64,000 nucleotides of DNA from Thermanaerosceptrum fracticalcis (GTDB lineage: Bacteria > Bacillota > Peptococcia > DRI-13). A program made the translations under genes and the position numbers. The number at the start of each line of letters is the position of its first letter. The stretch's first letter is position 1. Of this stretch, positions 921 through 10,752 are shown in pieces. Location: the NCBI RefSeq assembly GCF_000746025.2, contig NZ_CP045798.1, positions 310,001 through 374,000 of the forward strand, read 5' to 3'. Under the pieces are notes generated by a model. The model had not been told where the DNA came from and searched no databases. It worked only from the letters and a program-made list of their open reading frames with translations.

Positions 921-1544
921 TTAGAAGCACTGAGCCGGCGGCGTAGGTGGGCAAACACCGGGGATAGTAACACAGGGAGCCGGTACGCAGAAACCGTAGC
1001 TGGGAACCAGCAGCTGGACAGTGAGGATGCACTTGATAACCAGGCAGACCTGGAGGGTGCAGGTAACGGTGATGGATTCGAGGTTGACAGCACTGACAAT
1101 ACAGCTGCAGAAGAGCAGGGTGCTTTCACTGCAATCGGGAGAAACACCTTCGGGGCAGCACAGGGTGACTGTTTTGGTGAAATTAAACACCCTGTCAACG
1201 GTTTCGGTAGGATTATTGGGGTTCGTAAGGGTGATGGGGACGGAAACCAAGATGGTGATGGTGAAGAATCCACCGCCAGCGGAGACCCGGGAAACCTCTG
1301 TACAGGTAATACTACTACCCGGAGTGAGTTGACAGGGGGTGATAGTACCTACAGCAAAAGGTCCTGTGGTAAACTCGGTTAATCTGGATATAGTGGTATC
1401 CCGGGAAAGATCGTGGATTTGGAAGCAGCTGTCGTATACTTTGTCTACGACAATACATTCAATCCTCGTTGGGGGTGGGCAGCCTTCAGGTGGGCATACG
1501 CCCGGGGTTACTTCCTGTGCAATTTTTGCGGTCTTATCAAGCAT
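921..1544 (-). CDS. Cys-rich protein, probable spore-surface type, function unknown
   Basis: A 207-residue protein with an AAAGGAGG ribosome binding site about 10 bases before its ATG. It contains many cysteines, several in CPP/CCPEG contexts (near residues 17-30, 127-145 and 195-206), and a hydrophobic middle part made of alternating beta-type stretches. There is no obvious signal peptide. Cys/Pro-rich intracellular proteins of this kind in spore formers are often coat or exosporium components cross-linked by disulfides, and the Cys-rich and CsxC-like genes between 6.7 and 10.5 kb support this context. The assignment is inference: no named family was recognised. It is divergent from the next gene (1746). 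Confidence 0.6.
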   Translation of the reverse strand: MLDKTAKIAQEVTPGVCPPEGCPPPTRIECIVVDKVYDSCFQIHDLSRDTTISRLTEFTTGPFAVGTITPCQLTPGSSITCTEVSRVSAGGGFFTITILVSVPITLTNPNNPTETVDRVFNFTKTVTLCCPEGVSPDCSESTLLFCSCIVSAVNLESITVTCTLQVCLVIKCILTVQLLVPSYGFCVPAPCVTIPGVCPPTPPAQCF

Positions 1545-3677: not shown

Positions 3678-4337
3678 ATGAACAAAAAACTTGTCAAAAC
3701 TCTAGCCGTCTTAGGGATTTCCGCTTTACTGACTTCCCAGTTATTCGTACAAGAAGCCTATGCTTCCTGGGGGGCCGCCAGATTACGTGACTTACAAGGT
3801 ACAACTACCGCCCAGCCTGCCCCAAGTACGCCGACTAGTCCTACTACACCGAGTACAGGCAGCACTACTTCTGCTACACCGGGCACTCCAACGGTCACAA
3901 CACCTGCCTCTACGCCTTCTTCACCGGCAGCACCTTCCCCTGTAGAACAAGGGAGTATGAACGCGGAAGAACAGTTAATGTTGAAGTTGATAAACGAAGA
4001 AAGAAGTAAAAATGGGCTGAAACCCTTGGCGCCTATGGCTAAACTCAATGAATTGGCCCGTCTTAAGAGTATAGATATTATTAAAAAGAACTACTTTTCC
4101 CATACCTCTCCCACTTATGGTTCATTTGCCAAGATGGTTTATGATGCCGGCATCAGGTTTCGCTCCGTGGGGGAGAACTTAGCGAAAGCCCGTAATGCTC
4201 AACATGCTTTTAGCCTTTTGATGGCCAGTTCCGGGCATCGAGCCAACATTTTGAATCCCAACTTTACCCATGTTGGTCTCGGTGTAGTACCCGATAAATA
4301 TGGCGTTGTGGTAACGCAGCTTTTTATTATGCAATAG
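3678..4337 (+). CDS. Secreted CAP (SCP/PR1) domain protein, YkwD-like
   Basis: A 219-residue protein with AGGAGG seven bases before the ATG. Residues 1-29 form a signal peptide (MNKKLVKTLAVLG, cleavage near AYA-S). Residues 40-95 are a Pro/Thr/Ser linker. Residues 98-219 are a CAP domain: NEERSKNGLKPL, the FSHTSP motif (a CAP-cavity His), VGENLA, and SSGHRANILNPNFTHVGLG with the second cavity His. Bacterial YkwD-like CAP proteins are exported to the cell wall or spore coat; their biochemical activity is not settled. Transcribed alone, with a terminator just after the stop. Confidence 0.88.
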   Translation: MNKKLVKTLAVLGISALLTSQLFVQEAYASWGAARLRDLQGTTTAQPAPSTPTSPTTPSTGSTTSATPGTPTVTTPASTPSSPAAPSPVEQGSMNAEEQLMLKLINEERSKNGLKPLAPMAKLNELARLKSIDIIKKNYFSHTSPTYGSFAKMVYDAGIRFRSVGENLAKARNAQHAFSLLMASSGHRANILNPNFTHVGLGVVPDKYGVVVTQLFIMQ

Positions 4338-5817: not shown

Positions 5818-6000
5818 AAATATTACTTTGCTTTTATTAGGATAAAAAAATTTTTCCCTTTGTCCCCAAAGGGGTGTCCAATTTTTCTGGCAGGACATAT
5901 GATGTAGTGGGGGGATGGTAATCCTCTCAATGCGGCAGATCACATCTAATTTTCCTCCTTAACGAAAGGCCCTTTAGGGGCCTTTCCAAATAGTGTATAG
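5818..6000. other. Intergenic, inverted repeat only
   Basis: This stretch has no supported gene. It holds an inverted repeat GAAAGGCCC/GGGCCTTTC at about 5964-5986 without a clear T-tract; it could stop readthrough from the amidase-like gene. The flanking DNA is decayed (see the following two entries). Confidence 0.4.
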
Positions 6001-6031
6001 CAAAACCTTCCGTAGAGACGGAAGGTTTTTT
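6001..6031 (+). terminator. Rho-independent terminator-like hairpin
   Basis: AAAACCTTCC/GGAAGGTTTT with a GTAGAGAC loop and T-run on the plus strand. It overlaps the 3' end of the phosphomannomutase remnant read on the other strand. Confidence 0.7.
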
Positions 6032-6178
6032 CATAAGGTTCTTTATTAAGCAATGTCCCGTCCGGGAAAAAACAGGTTTGCCACCTAAATGAACAATTTT
6101 ATCAATTAGAGCCTGGGAACATTTTACTTCAACCAGGGCAGTAGACCCGGGGTAGCGGAGAATTTCTCCATCTTGCCA
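6023..6178 (-). pseudogene. Phosphomannomutase remnant (internal fragment)
   Basis: Reading the minus strand gives about 52 codons containing DGEILRYPGSTALVEVKCSQ and LGGKPVFSRTGHCLIK. These match the central block of phosphomannomutase/phosphoglucomutase (VKCSxxL, GGxPVxxRTGHSxIK, the metal/sugar-phosphate-binding region). Nothing upstream or downstream continues the protein, so it is a leftover internal piece. It lies back to back with a mannose-1-phosphate guanylyltransferase remnant, suggesting a lost GDP-mannose pathway locus. Confidence 0.7.
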
Positions 6179-6205
6179 CCGGCGGTTTCTTTGGGTAACC
6201 TTCTA

Positions 6206-6541
6206 GAACCTATGGGGAGAGATACAGCCTCAGCTTTAGGGTACGCCCTGGAGTGGCTGTCAGAGATTTAAGCCGATGCCATACTTATCACTTTTCCTGC
6301 TGACCACTATGTGGCCGCTGAAGAAAAATGGACTCAGGCTCTTACAGGCTCCTTTGACCGTAAAAAACTTTGTAGAAAAACCTGATATTTTTACGGCAGT
6401 AAAACTTCTGGCGGAAGGAAATTATTTCTGGAATAGCGGCATGTTATTGAAATCCCTGCATATCACAGAGTTTTACCATCCTATTTCACTATATAAGCAT
6501 AATGATGAGTACGCAAAAATAAATTTGAAGAAATTGTGGTA
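6206..6541 (+). pseudogene. Mannose-1-phosphate guanylyltransferase remnant
   Basis: The sequence EPMGRDTASALGYALEWL, an in-frame TAA, and then ADAILITFPADHYV correspond to the GRDTA and PADH blocks of ManC/AlgA-type guanylyltransferases. After a frame change near 6355 the piece NFVEKPD...GNYFWNSGM (the FVEKP and WNSGMF blocks) follows. The region between PADH and FVEKP that normally holds GYGYI is missing, so there is a stop, an internal deletion and a frameshift. It cannot encode a working enzyme. Confidence 0.8.
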
Positions 6542-6691
6542 GAGGGTCAGCCCTGGACCTTTATCTTTCTGATTTGAAGAAGATTAATTTGATCAAAATC
6601 TCTCCTGTTTACATTTTTTTTGTCACCTCCCATTTTGGCTTGCCATAATATAAGGTAGATCTAGTGATTTTATGTGAAAGGAGAGATTATC

Positions 6692-7423
6692 ATGTCAGCG
6701 GAGGCTAACACTACCAAATGCCCACCTTTTCCCCGTTTCATTTGTACACCGGTTATCATGGAAAAGGTTTGCGCCACAGGCACAAAGTGTTTTCACGATA
6801 TTCATTATCTCTTTGAAACTGATACTGGACGACCTATACCGCCTGATGCCTGTCCTATCAACTGTGTAGTCAGCAATCTGGAAATAATAGGTGTTGATAC
6901 TCCCGTTCCTCCAGGTGGTTTTCCACCGCGCCGGATAGGAGACTGTGTTATTTTCGTCGTTCGTTATAAAGTGCGTGTTTTCTTTGAATTTTTTGACTGC
7001 GTTACCAACAGTTTAGAGGTGGGCGTGGCGATGGGGGTATTTGAACGGGAACTGGCCGTACCGGTACGGGATATTGACGGCGGATGTGTTCTTTGTGCCC
7101 CTGAACAGACGGAAATTTGCATCAGACGCATTACTTTTGATTGTATCAGGGCGGTCTTGGTACCAAGGCCTGCTGGATTCCCACCCACGTTCCCGCCTTT
7201 TGCCATTGAAGTAACGGTAGAAAAGCAGTTCTTTGCCTTACAATCGGGGCGTTCCATAGTCTGCATCGCTTCTTGTCCCCTGGAGGAATGCATTGATTTG
7301 CCCTTCCCCGTACTGCCTGGTGAATGCATACCTTTTGAAAGACCTGCCCAATGCAAAAAATTCTGCCAGGAAACTGACCTGGAGCCTGGACGCTGTGCCC
7401 AGTGTCCGCCTCCCCAACCATAA
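6692..7423 (+). CDS. Cys-rich protein, probable spore-surface type, function unknown
   Basis: A 243-residue protein. ATG 6692 is preferred over an upstream GTG (6674) because AAAGGAGAG lies 8 bases before it. Cysteines are spread along the whole chain (about 20), with an N-terminal TKCPPFPRFIC block and a C-terminal CPPPQP. The core has alternating beta-strand character (VIFVVRYKVRVFFEFF). It resembles the 921-1544 protein in composition and beta pattern, but a clear family name was not recognised. Location next to three CsxC-like genes suggests a spore outer-layer structural protein (inference). A terminator follows. Confidence 0.6.
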   Translation: MSAEANTTKCPPFPRFICTPVIMEKVCATGTKCFHDIHYLFETDTGRPIPPDACPINCVVSNLEIIGVDTPVPPGGFPPRRIGDCVIFVVRYKVRVFFEFFDCVTNSLEVGVAMGVFERELAVPVRDIDGGCVLCAPEQTEICIRRITFDCIRAVLVPRPAGFPPTFPPFAIEVTVEKQFFALQSGRSIVCIASCPLEECIDLPFPVLPGECIPFERPAQCKKFCQETDLEPGRCAQCPPPQP

Positions 7424-7448
7424 TAATTTTTACTGCAAACCAAACAGG

Positions 7449-7478
7449 GAAAAACCACCTCAGCGAGGTGGTTTTTCC
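7449..7478 (+). terminator. Rho-independent terminator
   Basis: GAAAAACCACCTC/GAGGTGGTTTTTC with an AGC loop, 26 bases past the stop of the Cys-rich gene. The A- and T-runs on both arms may let it also serve the convergent gene. Confidence 0.8.
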
Positions 7479-7534
7479 TTAAGCCGAAAATCTTAATCTA
7501 TTAAAAAATTAAAAGCGGATTAATTAATCCAGCT

Positions 7535-8548
7535 TCAGCTATCAGTTGGAGGTATAGCTACTTGACGGTACTGCAATATCTTCAAGGTAAGGTAGATGAC
7601 CATTTTTTCTTCGATGCTGTTAAAAGTTGTTTCTTGCGTACTGGCGGGACATTGGGTATTGAGAAATTCGTCAAATTCTACTATCCTGCTGTTTGTTATT
7701 TCACAGAAAGGCATTTCATTGTAAAAAGCGGTACTAATTTGGTTAGATACTGTGAAGTCACCTGAGGAAATCTCAGCCTGATCGCAAAAATCAGCTTCAA
7801 GAAAATCGTGTTTCTTAAAAAATGGAAATTCCTTCATGTCATTTGAAATTGCAGGGGCCGGTTCAATGCCATTAAAGGCAACATTGGTGGTGCACTTAAA
7901 AGGAATATTAACAATGCAATGGCGTATTTCACCAGATAAGCCGTTTCCCCTGGCATAGTTGCTGGTTGAATACTCAAATTTTTTCCCAACGAATCCCCTG
8001 ATAAAGAGGATGTTTGTATTTTTCAATAAAGTGCATTCCGTAATCTTTAGGTGTTTTTTCATATTCTTTATTTCAGAGGCCTGCTCTGGAAGATCAATGG
8101 TTGCTTCAACATTAAGCTGGATAGTTAATTCCGCAAGTACTACGGGAATTTTGGCAACTGCACCTTTGCCCAAAGCATTTATCGGGCAGGGGGTATTGCC
8201 GCAATTAATAATGGCTTCACTTGTAACTTTAACAGAGTCAGGTTGTGATGGCAGATTACGGCTTTCTTGTTTTGGCGAATTTATGAGATCGTTTGGCGGT
8301 GATTCCTTTACTAAAGCACAACTGCTTTGAACTTGTCTAACAGGACTGTTATTTATTGCCTCTTGGGGGGTGGTCTGGCGGTTCTGATAAGAATGGGCTT
8401 CTTGTCTATGTAGCCAGTTAATAACAGCTTCCTGAGGCTCTCGATAATTATATTGCCCTTCTCCCTTCTTGCTTGAAAATCTAGTTATCCCATTGGGCAG
8501 GAGCTGGTTATTAAGGCTTTTTTCCAATATGCGATAGTAAAGAGTCAT
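7535..8548 (-). CDS. CsxC-like (exosporium-type) protein, long N-terminus
   Basis: A 337-residue protein; AAAGGGGG precedes the ATG. Residues 1-115 are a Gln/Asn/Ser-rich, low-complexity extension not found in the two paralogs next door. From about residue 120 it shares their core: INCGNTPCPINALGKGAVAKIPVVLAEL, KNMKKHLKITEC, NTNILFIRGFVGKKFEYST, IRHCIVNIPFKCTT and the C-terminal EEKMVIYLTLKILQYRQVA. I recognise this core as the CsxC family known from Clostridium exosporium; that name is from memory. Likely a structural protein of the spore outer layer. Confidence 0.65.
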   Translation of the reverse strand: MTLYYRILEKSLNNQLLPNGITRFSSKKGEGQYNYREPQEAVINWLHRQEAHSYQNRQTTPQEAINNSPVRQVQSSCALVKESPPNDLINSPKQESRNLPSQPDSVKVTSEAIINCGNTPCPINALGKGAVAKIPVVLAELTIQLNVEATIDLPEQASEIKNMKKHLKITECTLLKNTNILFIRGFVGKKFEYSTSNYARGNGLSGEIRHCIVNIPFKCTTNVAFNGIEPAPAISNDMKEFPFFKKHDFLEADFCDQAEISSGDFTVSNQISTAFYNEMPFCEITNSRIVEFDEFLNTQCPASTQETTFNSIEEKMVIYLTLKILQYRQVAIPPTDS

Positions 8549-8680
8549 GGAAGATACCCCCTTTCCATCCGCCAGATGCAGTTTGCTTTTTCTTCTGAAA
8601 TATCCTGACCCGCAATTTCCTCTGGTACCATATTATTCAATTTGTCCTTATTTGGTGAAAAACTAAATCTATTATATGCA

Positions 8681-8707
8681 AAAAAGGCCTACCTGCAGGC
8701 AGGCCTA
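8681..8707 (-). terminator. Terminator of the middle CsxC-like gene
   Basis: On the minus strand AGGCCTGCCTGCAGGTAGGCCT is followed by TTTTTT. A related inverted repeat (TTAGGCCTACCT/AGGTAGGCCTAA, about 9645-9672) lies after the third CsxC-like gene, so the two gene copies carry similar 3' ends. Confidence 0.75.
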
Positions 8708-8720
8708 ATTAATTTGATGA

Positions 8721-9560
8721 TCAACAAGGCGAAGGGGGAACTGCCACCTCACGGTTTTGCAAGATCTTGAGGGTAAGGAAGATAACCATTTTTTCTTCGC
8801 AACTTCTGAATACCCTTTTCTTAAGTGGAGCCTTGAGTTTTCTTGGAACAGGGCTGAGATATTCATTGAATTCCACGATTTTGCTGCTTTCTAACTCACA
8901 GAAAGGAAGTTCATTAAAGAACTCGGTAGTGATTTGATTAAATTCCGTGGAGTCACCGGTTAATAATTCGTCCTTTTCAGCAAATTGAGGTCCTTTAACC
9001 TCAAATCTGCCAAAATCTTGGAATTCATTGGTGCTGGCAGGGACAACCGGGAGAGGTTCCATGACATTGAAAGTAACCGGAGTAGTACACTTAAAGGGAA
9101 TTTCTACAGTGCAGTGACGGATGTCCCCGCAAATGGCCTCTGCATGCTCACAGTTTCTTGTGGAATAATTAATGTTTTTGTGGACTAATCCCTGGATAAA
9201 GAGGGTATTAGTATTTGGCAAGAGGAAACACTGGGTGATTTTAAGGCGATTAGCGACTTTTTTTATTGCTATGGTTGGTTCGGGAAAATCAAATACTACA
9301 GCGATATTTATCTGTACGGAGAGCTCGGCGAGAACGACAGGTATTTTTGCCACAACACCTGTTGCTAGAGGCGTGGGAGGGATGGGCTGGTTGATGCAAT
9401 TATTTATTGTTTCCCCTCTAACCTGAACATTAGCTACTTGTGTCTCGGCCTTACTGATCTTTACACCTTTTGGTTTCAACCAATTATTGGCTATGGCTGG
9501 CGGTTGGCCCAGAATATTGCCTGCATAGGCAGTTGCCAGGTCATTAAGTGGGCAGGACAT
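8721..9560 (-). CDS. CsxC-like (exosporium-type) protein
   Basis: A 279-residue protein with TAAAGGAGA before the ATG. Residues 1-50 are variable (MSCPLNDLATAYAGN). The core begins at INNCINQPIPPTPLATGVVAKIP and includes VVLAELSVQIN, RLKITQCFLLPNTNTLFIQG, the HCTVEIPFKCTTPVTFNVMEPLP block and EEKMVIFLTLKILQNREVAVP. It is close to the 9682-10476 paralog, with long identical runs around PVVPASTNEF, which indicates a fairly recent duplication. No signal peptide, as expected for a spore protein made in the mother cell. Confidence 0.7.
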   Translation of the reverse strand: MSCPLNDLATAYAGNILGQPPAIANNWLKPKGVKISKAETQVANVQVRGETINNCINQPIPPTPLATGVVAKIPVVLAELSVQINIAVVFDFPEPTIAIKKVANRLKITQCFLLPNTNTLFIQGLVHKNINYSTRNCEHAEAICGDIRHCTVEIPFKCTTPVTFNVMEPLPVVPASTNEFQDFGRFEVKGPQFAEKDELLTGDSTEFNQITTEFFNELPFCELESSKIVEFNEYLSPVPRKLKAPLKKRVFRSCEEKMVIFLTLKILQNREVAVPPSPC

Positions 9561-9681
9561 TGTCAGGTTTCTCCTTTATATCATTCATATTTAATAATTG
9601 CTTCAGAAGTTAACAATTGTCAAAAAGTGTTTTTAGATATATCTTAGGCCTACCTAGAGGTAGGCCTAAGATCATGAATAA

Positions 9682-10476
9682 TCAGCAATCAGAAGCGGGC
9701 ACTGCTACCTGGCGGTTTTGCAAGATCTTTAGGGTCAGGTAGATAACCATTTTTTCTTCAATCTTCTTAAATTCTCTTTCTTCAAAAGGTGCCTTAACAT
9801 TGGCCGGCGGCAGGGGATTTAGATATTCATCAAATTCCACGATCCTGCTGCTGACTAGTTCACAGAAAGGCAGCTCATTGAAGAATTCGGTACTGATTTG
9901 GTTATATTCCGTAAAGTCACCGGACAATAATTCGTCCTTTTCAGCAAATTGAGGGCCTTTAACATCAAATCTGCCAAAATATTGGAATTCATTGGTGCTG
10001 GCAGGGACAACCGGGAGAGGTTCCATGACATTGAAAATAACCGGTGTAGTACACTTAAAGGGTATGTCTACAGTGCAGTGGCGAATATCACCGCAAATGC
10101 CTTCCGGGGTAGAACATTTTCTTGTGGAGTAATCGATGTTTTTGCGTACAAAGCCTTTAATAAATAACATATTGGTGTTTTGCAACAACAAGCATTGGGT
10201 GATTTTCAGGCGTTTCTTGATATTTTTTATTTCGAGCGCAGGTTCGGGCAGTTCAATGGTTGAGTTGACATTAAATTGCACAGTAAGTTCGGCCAGGACA
10301 ACGGGTACTTTTACTACGGCACCTGTAAATAAAGGTTCAACGGGGACGGGATTGTTGACACATTCAATAATTTCTCCGCCGGAAACATCGGCACAAGCTG
10401 TGGGACAAAAAGTTTGGGCATCTTTTTTAAATAGATCTGCAGCAGTTCTAATTGTTTTACCTGGGTTCCAAGTCAT
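9682..10476 (-). CDS. CsxC-like (exosporium-type) protein
   Basis: A 264-residue protein; AAAAGGAGG precedes ATG at a good distance. It has the same core as its two downstream neighbours: IECVNNPVPVEPLFTGAVVKVPVVLAEL, KNIKKRLKITQCLLLQNTNMLFIKGF, HCTVDIPFKCTTPVIFNVMEP and EEKMVIYLTLKILQNRQVAVP. The short N-terminus (MTWNPGKTIRTAADLFKK) is unique. Three tandem paralogs each have their own ribosome site, and at least two have their own terminator-like hairpin, so they may be transcribed singly, probably late in sporulation (inference). No sigma factor site was established. Confidence 0.7.
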   Translation of the reverse strand: MTWNPGKTIRTAADLFKKDAQTFCPTACADVSGGEIIECVNNPVPVEPLFTGAVVKVPVVLAELTVQFNVNSTIELPEPALEIKNIKKRLKITQCLLLQNTNMLFIKGFVRKNIDYSTRKCSTPEGICGDIRHCTVDIPFKCTTPVIFNVMEPLPVVPASTNEFQYFGRFDVKGPQFAEKDELLSGDFTEYNQISTEFFNELPFCELVSSRIVEFDEYLNPLPPANVKAPFEEREFKKIEEKMVIYLTLKILQNRQVAVPASDC

Positions 10477-10752
10477 TCAGTTTTCCTCCTTTTGTTGATT
10501 GATTCTGGTTTGATGCCAAGTCAGTAATGCTTTCTTTTCGCATCCTAGTACATGTTATGCTTTTTGTCCCTTTTCGGTGACATGCTGTCAGGGATAAGTC
10601 CAAATTTTTTGGCAGAGGAAGCAGCCTTTGCTCAGATATTAGTTTAATTAACTGATTATTAAAATTTAGTTATAATAAAGGTTATATTTCCCTTCCCTCT
10701 TTAAAAACGGTAAAATAAATTTAACTAAGCAGTATCAATGGGAGGTAGAAAA

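What the first reader, a model, noticed from the sequence alone, without database searches (positions are those of the whole stretch)
6692..10476. Cluster of three CsxC-like paralogs beside a Cys-rich protein
Three tandem genes share a core with the blocks VPVVLAEL, KITQC, IPFKCTT and EEKMVIYLTLKILQ but have unrelated N-termini. One carries a 115-residue Gln/Asn/Ser-rich extension that could be a surface filament or adhesion region. CsxC-type proteins were described in Clostridium exosporium; a multi-copy set with Cys-rich companions hints at a self-assembling spore outer layer.
Basis: partly seen in the sequence, partly recalled or inferred. Interest (0 to 1): 0.5.

Follow-up and report, generated by a model that had tools for sequence, protein, structure and literature searches.

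The report
Spore-coat gene cluster, CsxC plus CotE-like
Three neighbouring genes encode spore-envelope proteins of the known CsxC family, and the cysteine-rich gene beside them looks like a heavily cysteine-loaded relative of the Bacillus outer-coat protein CotE; both seem to share one protein fold used to build bacterial spore coats, which suggests how little-studied clostridia may wrap their spores.

Summary
Three tandem minus-strand genes (9682-10476, 8721-9560, 7535-8548) pass NCBIfam's CsxC_fam cut-off (261, 221 and 217 bits against 135). A 20-Cys protein (6692-7423, +) lies beside them. CsxC is not confined to C. botulinum group I: relatives occur in many Clostridia and some Bacilli, often in tandem. 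(1) The conserved N-half of CsxC resembles the SPOCS domain of SipL: NCBIfam's CsxC model hits this genome's own SipL (E 1.6e-8, below cut-off); hhalign 83%, against at most 3.3% in 100 shuffles. (2) The Cys-rich protein, unnamed by Pfam or NCBIfam, aligns with CotE (hhalign 96%, E 3.9e-9); relatives bridge it to Pfam CotE and SipL. SPOCS is a published SpoVID-CotE-SipL superfamily. Sigma-E/K-like elements precede 18 of 23 CotE-like genes, 22 of 556 controls. Not a fixed module: a same-genus genome keeps the CotE-like gene but lacks the CsxC block, and the two never share a contig in 8 other genomes carrying both. Lattice self-assembly is untested; the adhesion-filament idea is unsupported.

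The parts
9682..10476 (-). CsxC paralogue, copy 1 (264 aa, 10 Cys)
   Evidence: NF045794 261 bits, cut-off 135; highest identity 73%, to a copy in Peptococcaceae bacterium UBA5318
8721..9560 (-). CsxC paralogue, copy 2 (279 aa, 10 Cys)
   Evidence: NF045794 221 bits; groups weakly with copy 1 (84/92, open fork); no promoter motif found upstream
7535..8548 (-). CsxC paralogue, copy 3 (337 aa, 9 Cys) with a conserved N-terminal head and a Gln/Asn/Ser-rich linker
   Evidence: NF045794 217 bits; separate clade with L009, L032 and L012 copies, support 100/99; N-terminus aligned
6692..7423 (+). Cys-rich CotE-like protein (243 aa, 20 Cys)
   Evidence: no Pfam or NCBIfam hit; hhalign to CotE 96.0%, E 3.9e-9, 151 columns; second copy at G000:C1:3013932-3014615; matches in 17 of 46 genomes of the class
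6625..6652 (+). sigma-E/K-like promoter of the CotE-like gene, AC-N17-CATAATATA
   Evidence: same perfect element in 18 of 23 family upstreams against 22 of 556 controls. By itself an exact match is not rare in the window (4 found, 1.9 expected)
10546..10581 (-). promoter-like element of copy 1 (ends in GCATAACATGTACTA)
   Evidence: held-out score above the 98th percentile of controls
8624..8659 (-). promoter-like element of copy 3
   Evidence: held-out score above the 98th percentile of controls
8685..8706 (-). terminator-like hairpin after copy 2
7448..7478 (-). terminator-like hairpin between the convergent copy 3 and CotE-like genes
7426..10685 (.). block holding all three CsxC genes, absent in the same-genus genome G398, where about 245 unrelated bases stand in its place
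921..1544 (-). second Cys-rich gene (207 aa, 18 Cys), distantly like the BMQ_0737 spore-coat family; possible further companion
   Evidence: NF052457 E 9.5e-8, 32.5 bits against cut-off 71; relatives 2.7 and 3.1 kb from CsxC genes in L028 and L032

Best explanation
This is a set of spore-envelope structural genes switched on in the mother cell during sporulation. The three CsxC paralogues are single-SPOCS-domain proteins: one SPOCS-like beta domain (about residues 53-145 of copy 1) followed by a second, family-specific beta-rich part and preceded by a variable N-terminus. The Cys-rich neighbour is a cysteine-loaded relative of CotE, the outer-coat organiser of Bacillus, and so belongs to the same published SPOCS superfamily (SpoVID-CotE-SipL). 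Proposed mechanism (inferred): SpoIVA and SipL form the base layer. The CotE-like protein assembles outside it. CsxC proteins dock onto SipL or the CotE-like layer through SPOCS contacts, as SpoVID's SPOCS domain contacts CotE in B. subtilis. Disulfides between the conserved cysteines then lock the layer. The N-terminal variants give the paralogues different outward-facing parts or partners. Shown by computation: family membership, SPOCS/CotE relatedness, promoter type. Inferred: location in the envelope, docking, cross-linking.
For: CsxC_fam cut-off passed by all three copies; the family's founder was found in purified C. sporogenes exosporium (PMC4942563, passages). NCBIfam's CsxC model hits own SipL residues 184-269, E 1.6e-8, below its cut-off, and SipL-like ORFs of about 500-690 aa in many genomes. 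All three SPOCS repeats of SipL align to the same CsxC region: hhalign 83%, 33% and 14%; 100 column shuffles at most 3.3%, reversed alignment 0.1%. The AF2 model of copy 1 is all-beta with block-mean pLDDT of 86 to 98 over residues 51-150. Cys-rich family against CotE: 96.0% (93.5% in the other direction), 100 shuffles at most 2.7%, reversed 0.7%. Bridge proteins match the Cys-rich profile at E below 1e-27 and Pfam CotE at E 6e-5 to 1.5e-3, three of them also Pfam SipL at E 9e-5 to 7e-4, all below cut-off; one further shared ORF, G076:C113, passes the CotE cut-off (25.4 bits; Cys-rich profile E 1.9e-14). Promoters: 18 of 23 CotE-like upstreams perfect against 22 of 556 controls, and 6 of 7 bridge genes; CsxC upstream motif held-out in 28 of 68, where 2% is expected. 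Host has SpoIVA (776 bits) and SipL with three SPOCS domains plus LysM.
Against: No expression, proteomic or structural data for this organism. Pfam's own SPOCS (PF12673) and CotE (PF10628) models do not reach the window proteins even at E of 1. CsxC against CotE and CsxC against the Cys-rich profile give no signal, nor does the Cys-rich profile against SipL, so the shared superfamily rests on SipL on one side and the bridge proteins on the other. 83% is moderate. Fold search found nothing; no SPOCS or CotE chain is in the PDB by sequence, so this is uninformative. Linkage is not conserved. Copy 2 lacks the promoter motif. The CsxC element (GAATANNATG) departs from the sigma-K consensus, which is itself recalled and not from a call. 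The docking and cross-linking steps are inference.
Confidence: 0.7

Rival explanations
1. CsxC itself is the lattice-forming subunit: the paralogues co-assemble by themselves into a disulfide-linked two-dimensional array, as CsxA does in C. sporogenes.
For: Multi-copy sets are common (17 of 35 named loci, counted; 10 of the 20 genomes over the cut-off, counted); four cysteines of copy 1 (39, 95, 142, 205) are kept in 45 to 48 of 51 sequences; long strands in the model.
Against: Only 9-10 Cys per chain; in C. sporogenes recombinant CsxA alone made the lattice (PMC7333573, abstract and passages), and CsxC was one of several proteins in a 30-kDa gel band (PMC4942563, passages). Nothing here tests lattice contacts.
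Confidence: 0.2
2. These are sporulation proteins carried in the coat with no structural role; the SPOCS-like domain is only a targeting tag that sends them to the spore surface.
For: A same-genus genome lacks the whole CsxC block (that assembly is about 80% complete), so CsxC is probably dispensable for the lineage; N-termini are variable.
Against: Conserved cysteines and a conserved whole-length core in 51 sequences; no enzyme domain found.
Confidence: 0.25
3. The Gln/Asn/Ser-rich extension of copy 3 is a surface filament or adhesion region.
For: Strong compositional bias.
Against: The extension is a ~25-residue conserved head plus a linker whose length varies from one orthologue to the next; no repeat or adhesin family was found.
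Confidence: 0.05
4. The similarity of the Cys-rich protein to CotE is convergence of beta-rich coat proteins rather than homology.
For: No CotE model hits the window protein directly (CotE profile E 0.06 for it).
Against: Full-length collinear alignment, shuffled and reversed controls, bridging sequences matched by both profiles.
Confidence: 0.08

Closest known systems
CsxC family (NCBIfam NF045794), founder in Clostridium sporogenes exosporium (PMC4942563)
   Same: All three window proteins exceed the curated cut-off over the whole 203-position model.
   Different: 9-10 Cys instead of 14; tandem set of three; copy 3 has a long N-terminal extension.
SipL (SPOCS x3 + LysM), clostridial coat organiser that binds SpoIVA through LysM (PMC6436350, passages)
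   Same: One SPOCS-like domain, aligned with each of the three SipL repeats.
   Different: CsxC has one such domain, no LysM hit, and an extra C-terminal beta-rich part; it is not SipL, which the genome encodes separately.
CotE (Pfam PF10628), outer-coat organiser of Bacillus
   Same: Full-length collinear profile match of the Cys-rich protein.
   Different: 20 Cys in the window protein, against 0-8 in the 38 CotE sequences used; below Pfam detection.
CsxA, lattice protein of the C. sporogenes exosporium (PMC7333573)
   Same: Cys-rich spore-surface protein in a clostridium (by analogy only).
   Different: No CsxA sequence was in hand, so relatedness of any window protein to CsxA was not tested.
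BMQ_0737 family (NF052457), outer-layer protein of B. megaterium spores (PMC4656864, passages)
   Same: Distant match of the second Cys-rich gene at 921-1544.
   Different: 32.5 bits against a cut-off of 71; not a member by that rule.

Membership tests
CsxC (NF045794) | score over the curated cut-off of 135 bits | tested here: met
   261.2, 220.7 and 216.5 bits
CsxC (NF045794) | cysteine-rich (14 Cys in the founder, PMC4942563) | tested here: inconclusive
   10, 10 and 9 Cys; four positions kept in 45-48 of 51
CsxC (NF045794) | present in purified exosporium | not testable with these tools
   needs proteomics
SPOCS superfamily, for CsxC | Pfam PF12673 over its cut-off | tested here: not met
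   no PF12673 match at E up to 1 for the three window proteins; so related to SPOCS at profile level, not filed as a PF12673 member
SPOCS superfamily, for CsxC | profile-level similarity to SipL SPOCS domains over controls | tested here: met
   (83%), controls; NF045794 hits own SipL at E 1.6e-8
SPOCS superfamily, for CsxC | same fold as a solved SPOCS domain | tested here: inconclusive
   no solved SPOCS or CotE chain found by sequence; Foldseek and VIA gave no clear match
SipL | three SPOCS domains plus C-terminal LysM | tested here: not met
   no LysM or PF12673 hit in the window proteins; genuine SipL elsewhere in the genome
CotE (PF10628), for 6692-7423 | Pfam PF10628 over its cut-off | tested here: not met
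   no match at E up to 1; relatives up to 23 bits against cut-off 25; so a CotE relative, not filed as a PF10628 member
CotE (PF10628), for 6692-7423 | collinear full-length profile similarity | tested here: met
   96.0%, E 3.9e-9, 151 columns; controls; bridges
CotE (PF10628), for 6692-7423 | needed for outer coat assembly | not testable with these tools
   needs a deletion mutant
CsxA-type lattice | self-assembles into hexagonal arrays | not testable with these tools
   needs recombinant protein and electron microscopy
BMQ_0737 (NF052457), for 921-1544 | score over the curated cut-off of 71 bits | tested here: not met
   32.5 bits, E 9.5e-8

The most novel reading that the evidence does not exclude
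The Cys-rich CotE-like protein is the CotE equivalent of this lineage of Clostridia, in which Pfam's CotE model finds nothing: a disulfide-locked outer-coat organiser. CsxC proteins are detachable single-SPOCS adaptors that plug into the SipL/CotE-like scaffold, so the clostridial exosporium or outer coat is built from one repeatedly duplicated SPOCS fold rather than from unrelated proteins.
Probability: 0.3. Interest if true: 0.68.

Novelty: new variant of a known kind. Interest (0 to 1): 0.5.

Why it matters
A 2022 review (PMC9542656, passages) says that of ten B. [quoted passage not shown] difficile, and describes the protein called CotE there as an 81-kDa chitinase-peroxiredoxin, a different thing. 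A cysteine-loaded CotE relative with a near-uniform sigma-E/K-like promoter, in an order where the Pfam CotE model is silent, is a concrete candidate organiser of the outer layers. Reading CsxC as a stand-alone SPOCS protein gives an orphan exosporium protein a testable docking partner. The searches for CsxC (two papers) and for the SPOCS domain (two papers) have no paper in common in the library held; subscription journals are mostly missing from it.

Tried and rejected
Structure search of the CsxC model: Foldseek best E 2.8e-3 with TM 0.13; VIA best Z 3.2. The rows are secretins and ligand-gated channel domains, generic beta proteins, so no conclusion was drawn. Single-sequence model of the Cys-rich protein: pLDDT 39.8, discarded. 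Sequence search of PDB with the CsxC profile: only aminopeptidase N at E 0.44 and above, rejected as chance; Cys-rich protein and a bridge protein: none; 921-1544: one chance row at E 0.69.

The idea that the Cys-rich protein is itself CsxC- or SipL-like by direct profile comparison failed: 0.1%. It became tractable only through CotE. A conserved CsxC plus Cys-rich operon was looked for and rejected. Pattern search of the own genome for the CsxC -10 region found 4 places, and 2 for the backwards control: no regulon claim is made. Generic sigma-70 scan: 12 found, 10.7 expected: uninformative. Pfam DUF7852 just over its cut-off in all three window proteins covers 46 to 73 residues only, and no paper held names it.

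Rows dropped before counts: upstreams shorter than 150 bases, identical in their last 100 bases or holding N were left out of the promoter counts. Near-duplicates remain (for instance L068/L069 and L076/L111). The 35-of-68 figure is in-sample; the held-out figure is 28 of 68. The CsxC alignment A3 uses 51 of the roughly 55 distinct CsxC ORFs's named loci and window: L011's two copies (near-twins of L012's), L019's and L032's second copies and the weak L042 and L043 were left out.
Full report
What is there. Window 6692-10476 holds four genes. Three on the minus strand (10476 to 7535 in reading order) encode proteins of 264, 279 and 337 aa that share a core. All three pass the curated cut-off of NCBIfam CsxC_fam NF045794: 261.2, 220.7 and 216.5 bits against 135. 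The fourth, on the plus strand, encodes a 243-aa protein with 20 cysteines that neither Pfam nor NCBIfam names at E up to 1. No fourth CsxC gene was found in the 3.8-Mb genome; the only other CsxC-model match is SipL. The Cys-rich gene has one paralogue far away, 76% identical. The genome encodes SpoIVA (775.9 bits) and a SipL with three SPOCS domains and LysM, so the host is equipped to sporulate.

How widespread. In the 2016 description CsxC was found only in C. sporogenes and group I C. botulinum (PMC4942563, passages). Here 35 named contigs encode relatives, in Peptococcaceae, Thermotaleaceae, Natronincolaceae, Desulfotomaculaceae, Alicyclobacillaceae, Bacillaceae and others; two of the 35 are weak partial matches (L042, L043). 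In an even sample of the phylum 20 of 398 genomes are over the cut-off, and from the rows listed there 10 of those 20 have two or more copies. Among the 35 named loci 17 hold at least two copies at E below 1e-20 within the fetched flanks (counted). So a multi-copy set is usual, not special to this window.

Paralogues. In a tree of 51 CsxC proteins copy 3 belongs to a firm clade (100/99) with one copy each from UBA5318, UBA6129 and isolate SV3-B7.1, while copies 1 and 2 fall near other copies of the same three genomes with weaker support (84/92, 86/96). At least one duplication is therefore probably older than these lineages. The extension of copy 3 starts with a head shared by these orthologues, followed by a linker that is longest in this window. 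It is Gln/Asn/Ser-rich (31% of 115 residues), about 1 in 574 windows. That reads as a flexible spacer rather than a filament.

CsxC as a SPOCS protein. The CsxC model also rings, under its cut-off, on ORFs of about 500-690 aa in many genomes over model positions 1-120. In this genome that ORF is SipL. A profile of the 51 CsxC proteins, with no SipL in it, finds three stretches in the SipL proteins, each at a SPOCS repeat (13 SipL ORFs, E 3e-8 to 0.0045 in a small set). hhalign gives 83%, 33% and 14% for the three repeats. The best of 100 column shuffles reaches 3.3% and the reversed alignment 0.1%. NCBIfam's own CsxC model scores SipL at E 1.6e-8, 34.8 bits, below its cut-off. Against: Pfam PF12673 does not report the window proteins. 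The AF2 model from 51 sequences is all-beta, mean pLDDT 81.5, with block means of 86 to 98 over residues 51-150. It matches nothing in the PDB clearly, and no SPOCS or CotE chain was found there by sequence.

The Cys-rich neighbour as a CotE relative. Its family (22 sequences) keeps nearly all cysteines: 19 of the 20 window cysteines are in 14 to 22 of 22 sequences. Against a CotE alignment of 38 sequences (loci) hhalign gives 96.0%, E 3.9e-9, over 151 collinear columns; in the other direction 93.5%; best of 100 shuffles 2.7%; reversed 0.7%. CsxC against CotE gives nothing. A phylum sample shows bridges: ORFs in G034, G048, G076, G087, G112 and G122 match both the Cys-rich profile (E 2e-14 to 7e-35) and PF10628. 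One of them (G076:C113) is over the CotE cut-off. Seven relatives were scanned with Pfam: six show CotE and four of these also SipL (one at only E 0.22), all under cut-off; the seventh, L170, shows nothing. SPOCS is described as the SpoVID-CotE-SipL domain (PMC10867305, PMC10659427, passages), so both gene kinds here fall, at profile level, in one published superfamily. Pfam CotE has no match in this genome nor in the 10 other genomes of its order and class that were in that sample. These seven relatives have 20-25 Cys.

Promoters. The sigma-K consensus (AC, then CATANNNTA) is recalled, not from a call. A perfect AC-N15-18-CATANNNTA lies upstream of 18 of 23 CotE-like genes (all 18 at spacing 16-18) and of 22 of 556 other ORFs in the same loci; 6 of the 7 further relatives have it too. 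Some of these upstreams are near-duplicates. CsxC genes carry a different shared element, GTAACC...GAATAACATGTACTA. Trained on part of the loci and tested on the rest, it exceeds the 98th percentile of 551 controls in 28 of 68 cases. It is present before copies 1 and 3, not before copy 2, which may be read through from copy 1. Both elements look like mother-cell sigma-E/K promoters, but which sigma factor cannot be told.

Is it one module? No. In G398, same genus, the region is collinear with the window, except that 3.26 kb holding all three CsxC genes is missing between the CotE-like gene and pgeF, with about 245 unrelated bases there. That assembly is about 80% complete and shows no CsxC elsewhere. 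Gain or loss cannot be told. In the class 11 of 46 genomes are over the CsxC cut-off and 17 of 46 have the CotE-like family, one of them by a weak partial match. 9 of the 11 have both. Outside this genome the two are on different contigs in all 8; most are draft assemblies, but in G404 the CotE-like gene lies over 100 kb from either contig end.

Reading. The most likely function is building and locking an outer spore layer from SPOCS-fold proteins: SipL at the base through SpoIVA (PMC6436350, passages), a cysteine-loaded CotE-like protein outside, and CsxC paralogues docking on them. The contact is modelled on SpoVID's SPOCS domain binding CotE (stated in PMC10867305, passages; the primary paper it cites was not read). 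Membership and promoter type are computed; location, docking and cross-linking are inferred. The adhesion-filament reading has no support; the lattice reading stays open.

Noticed in passing
L010 8887-11019, L013 10022-12181, L016 8844-11003: A gene for an anaerobic carbon monoxide dehydrogenase catalytic subunit (named in L010; the other two by clustering) lies 106-213 bases after a CsxC gene on the same strand in three Thermotaleaceae loci. The same kind of enzyme was listed in the C. sporogenes exosporium preparation (PMC4942563, table), which may be contamination.
   Followed up: partly
window 5974-6445: Fragments 91-94% identical to parts of a mannose-1-phosphate guanylyltransferase gene and a phosphomannomutase-type gene that are whole in the same-genus genome (L104 8100-9536 and 9569-11059): the sugar-nucleotide cluster beside the CotE-like gene looks decayed in the window.
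   Followed up: partly
window 921-1544, L028 3646-4266, L032 12917-13528: Family of 17-18-Cys proteins distantly like BMQ_0737, 2.7 and 3.1 kb from CsxC genes in two other loci.
   Followed up: partly
L037 10235-10798, L038 10239-10835, L039 9083-9349, L041 7229-7651: Short Cys/His/Lys-rich repeat proteins (14-35 Cys) beside CsxC genes in Bacilli.
   Followed up: no
L028 8851-10483, likewise L029, L030, L033: In four Desulfotomaculum-like loci CsxC is followed by a conserved small opposite-strand gene and two related tandem genes of unknown function.
   Followed up: no
L018 6082-6981: A very divergent CsxC copy (end branch 4.19 changes per column) next to an ordinary one on the other strand.
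   Followed up: no
window 3678-4337: CAP-domain protein resembling the YkwD spore family (TIGR02909, 142.6 bits, under its cut-off of 171), about 2.4 kb from the CotE-like gene.
   Followed up: no
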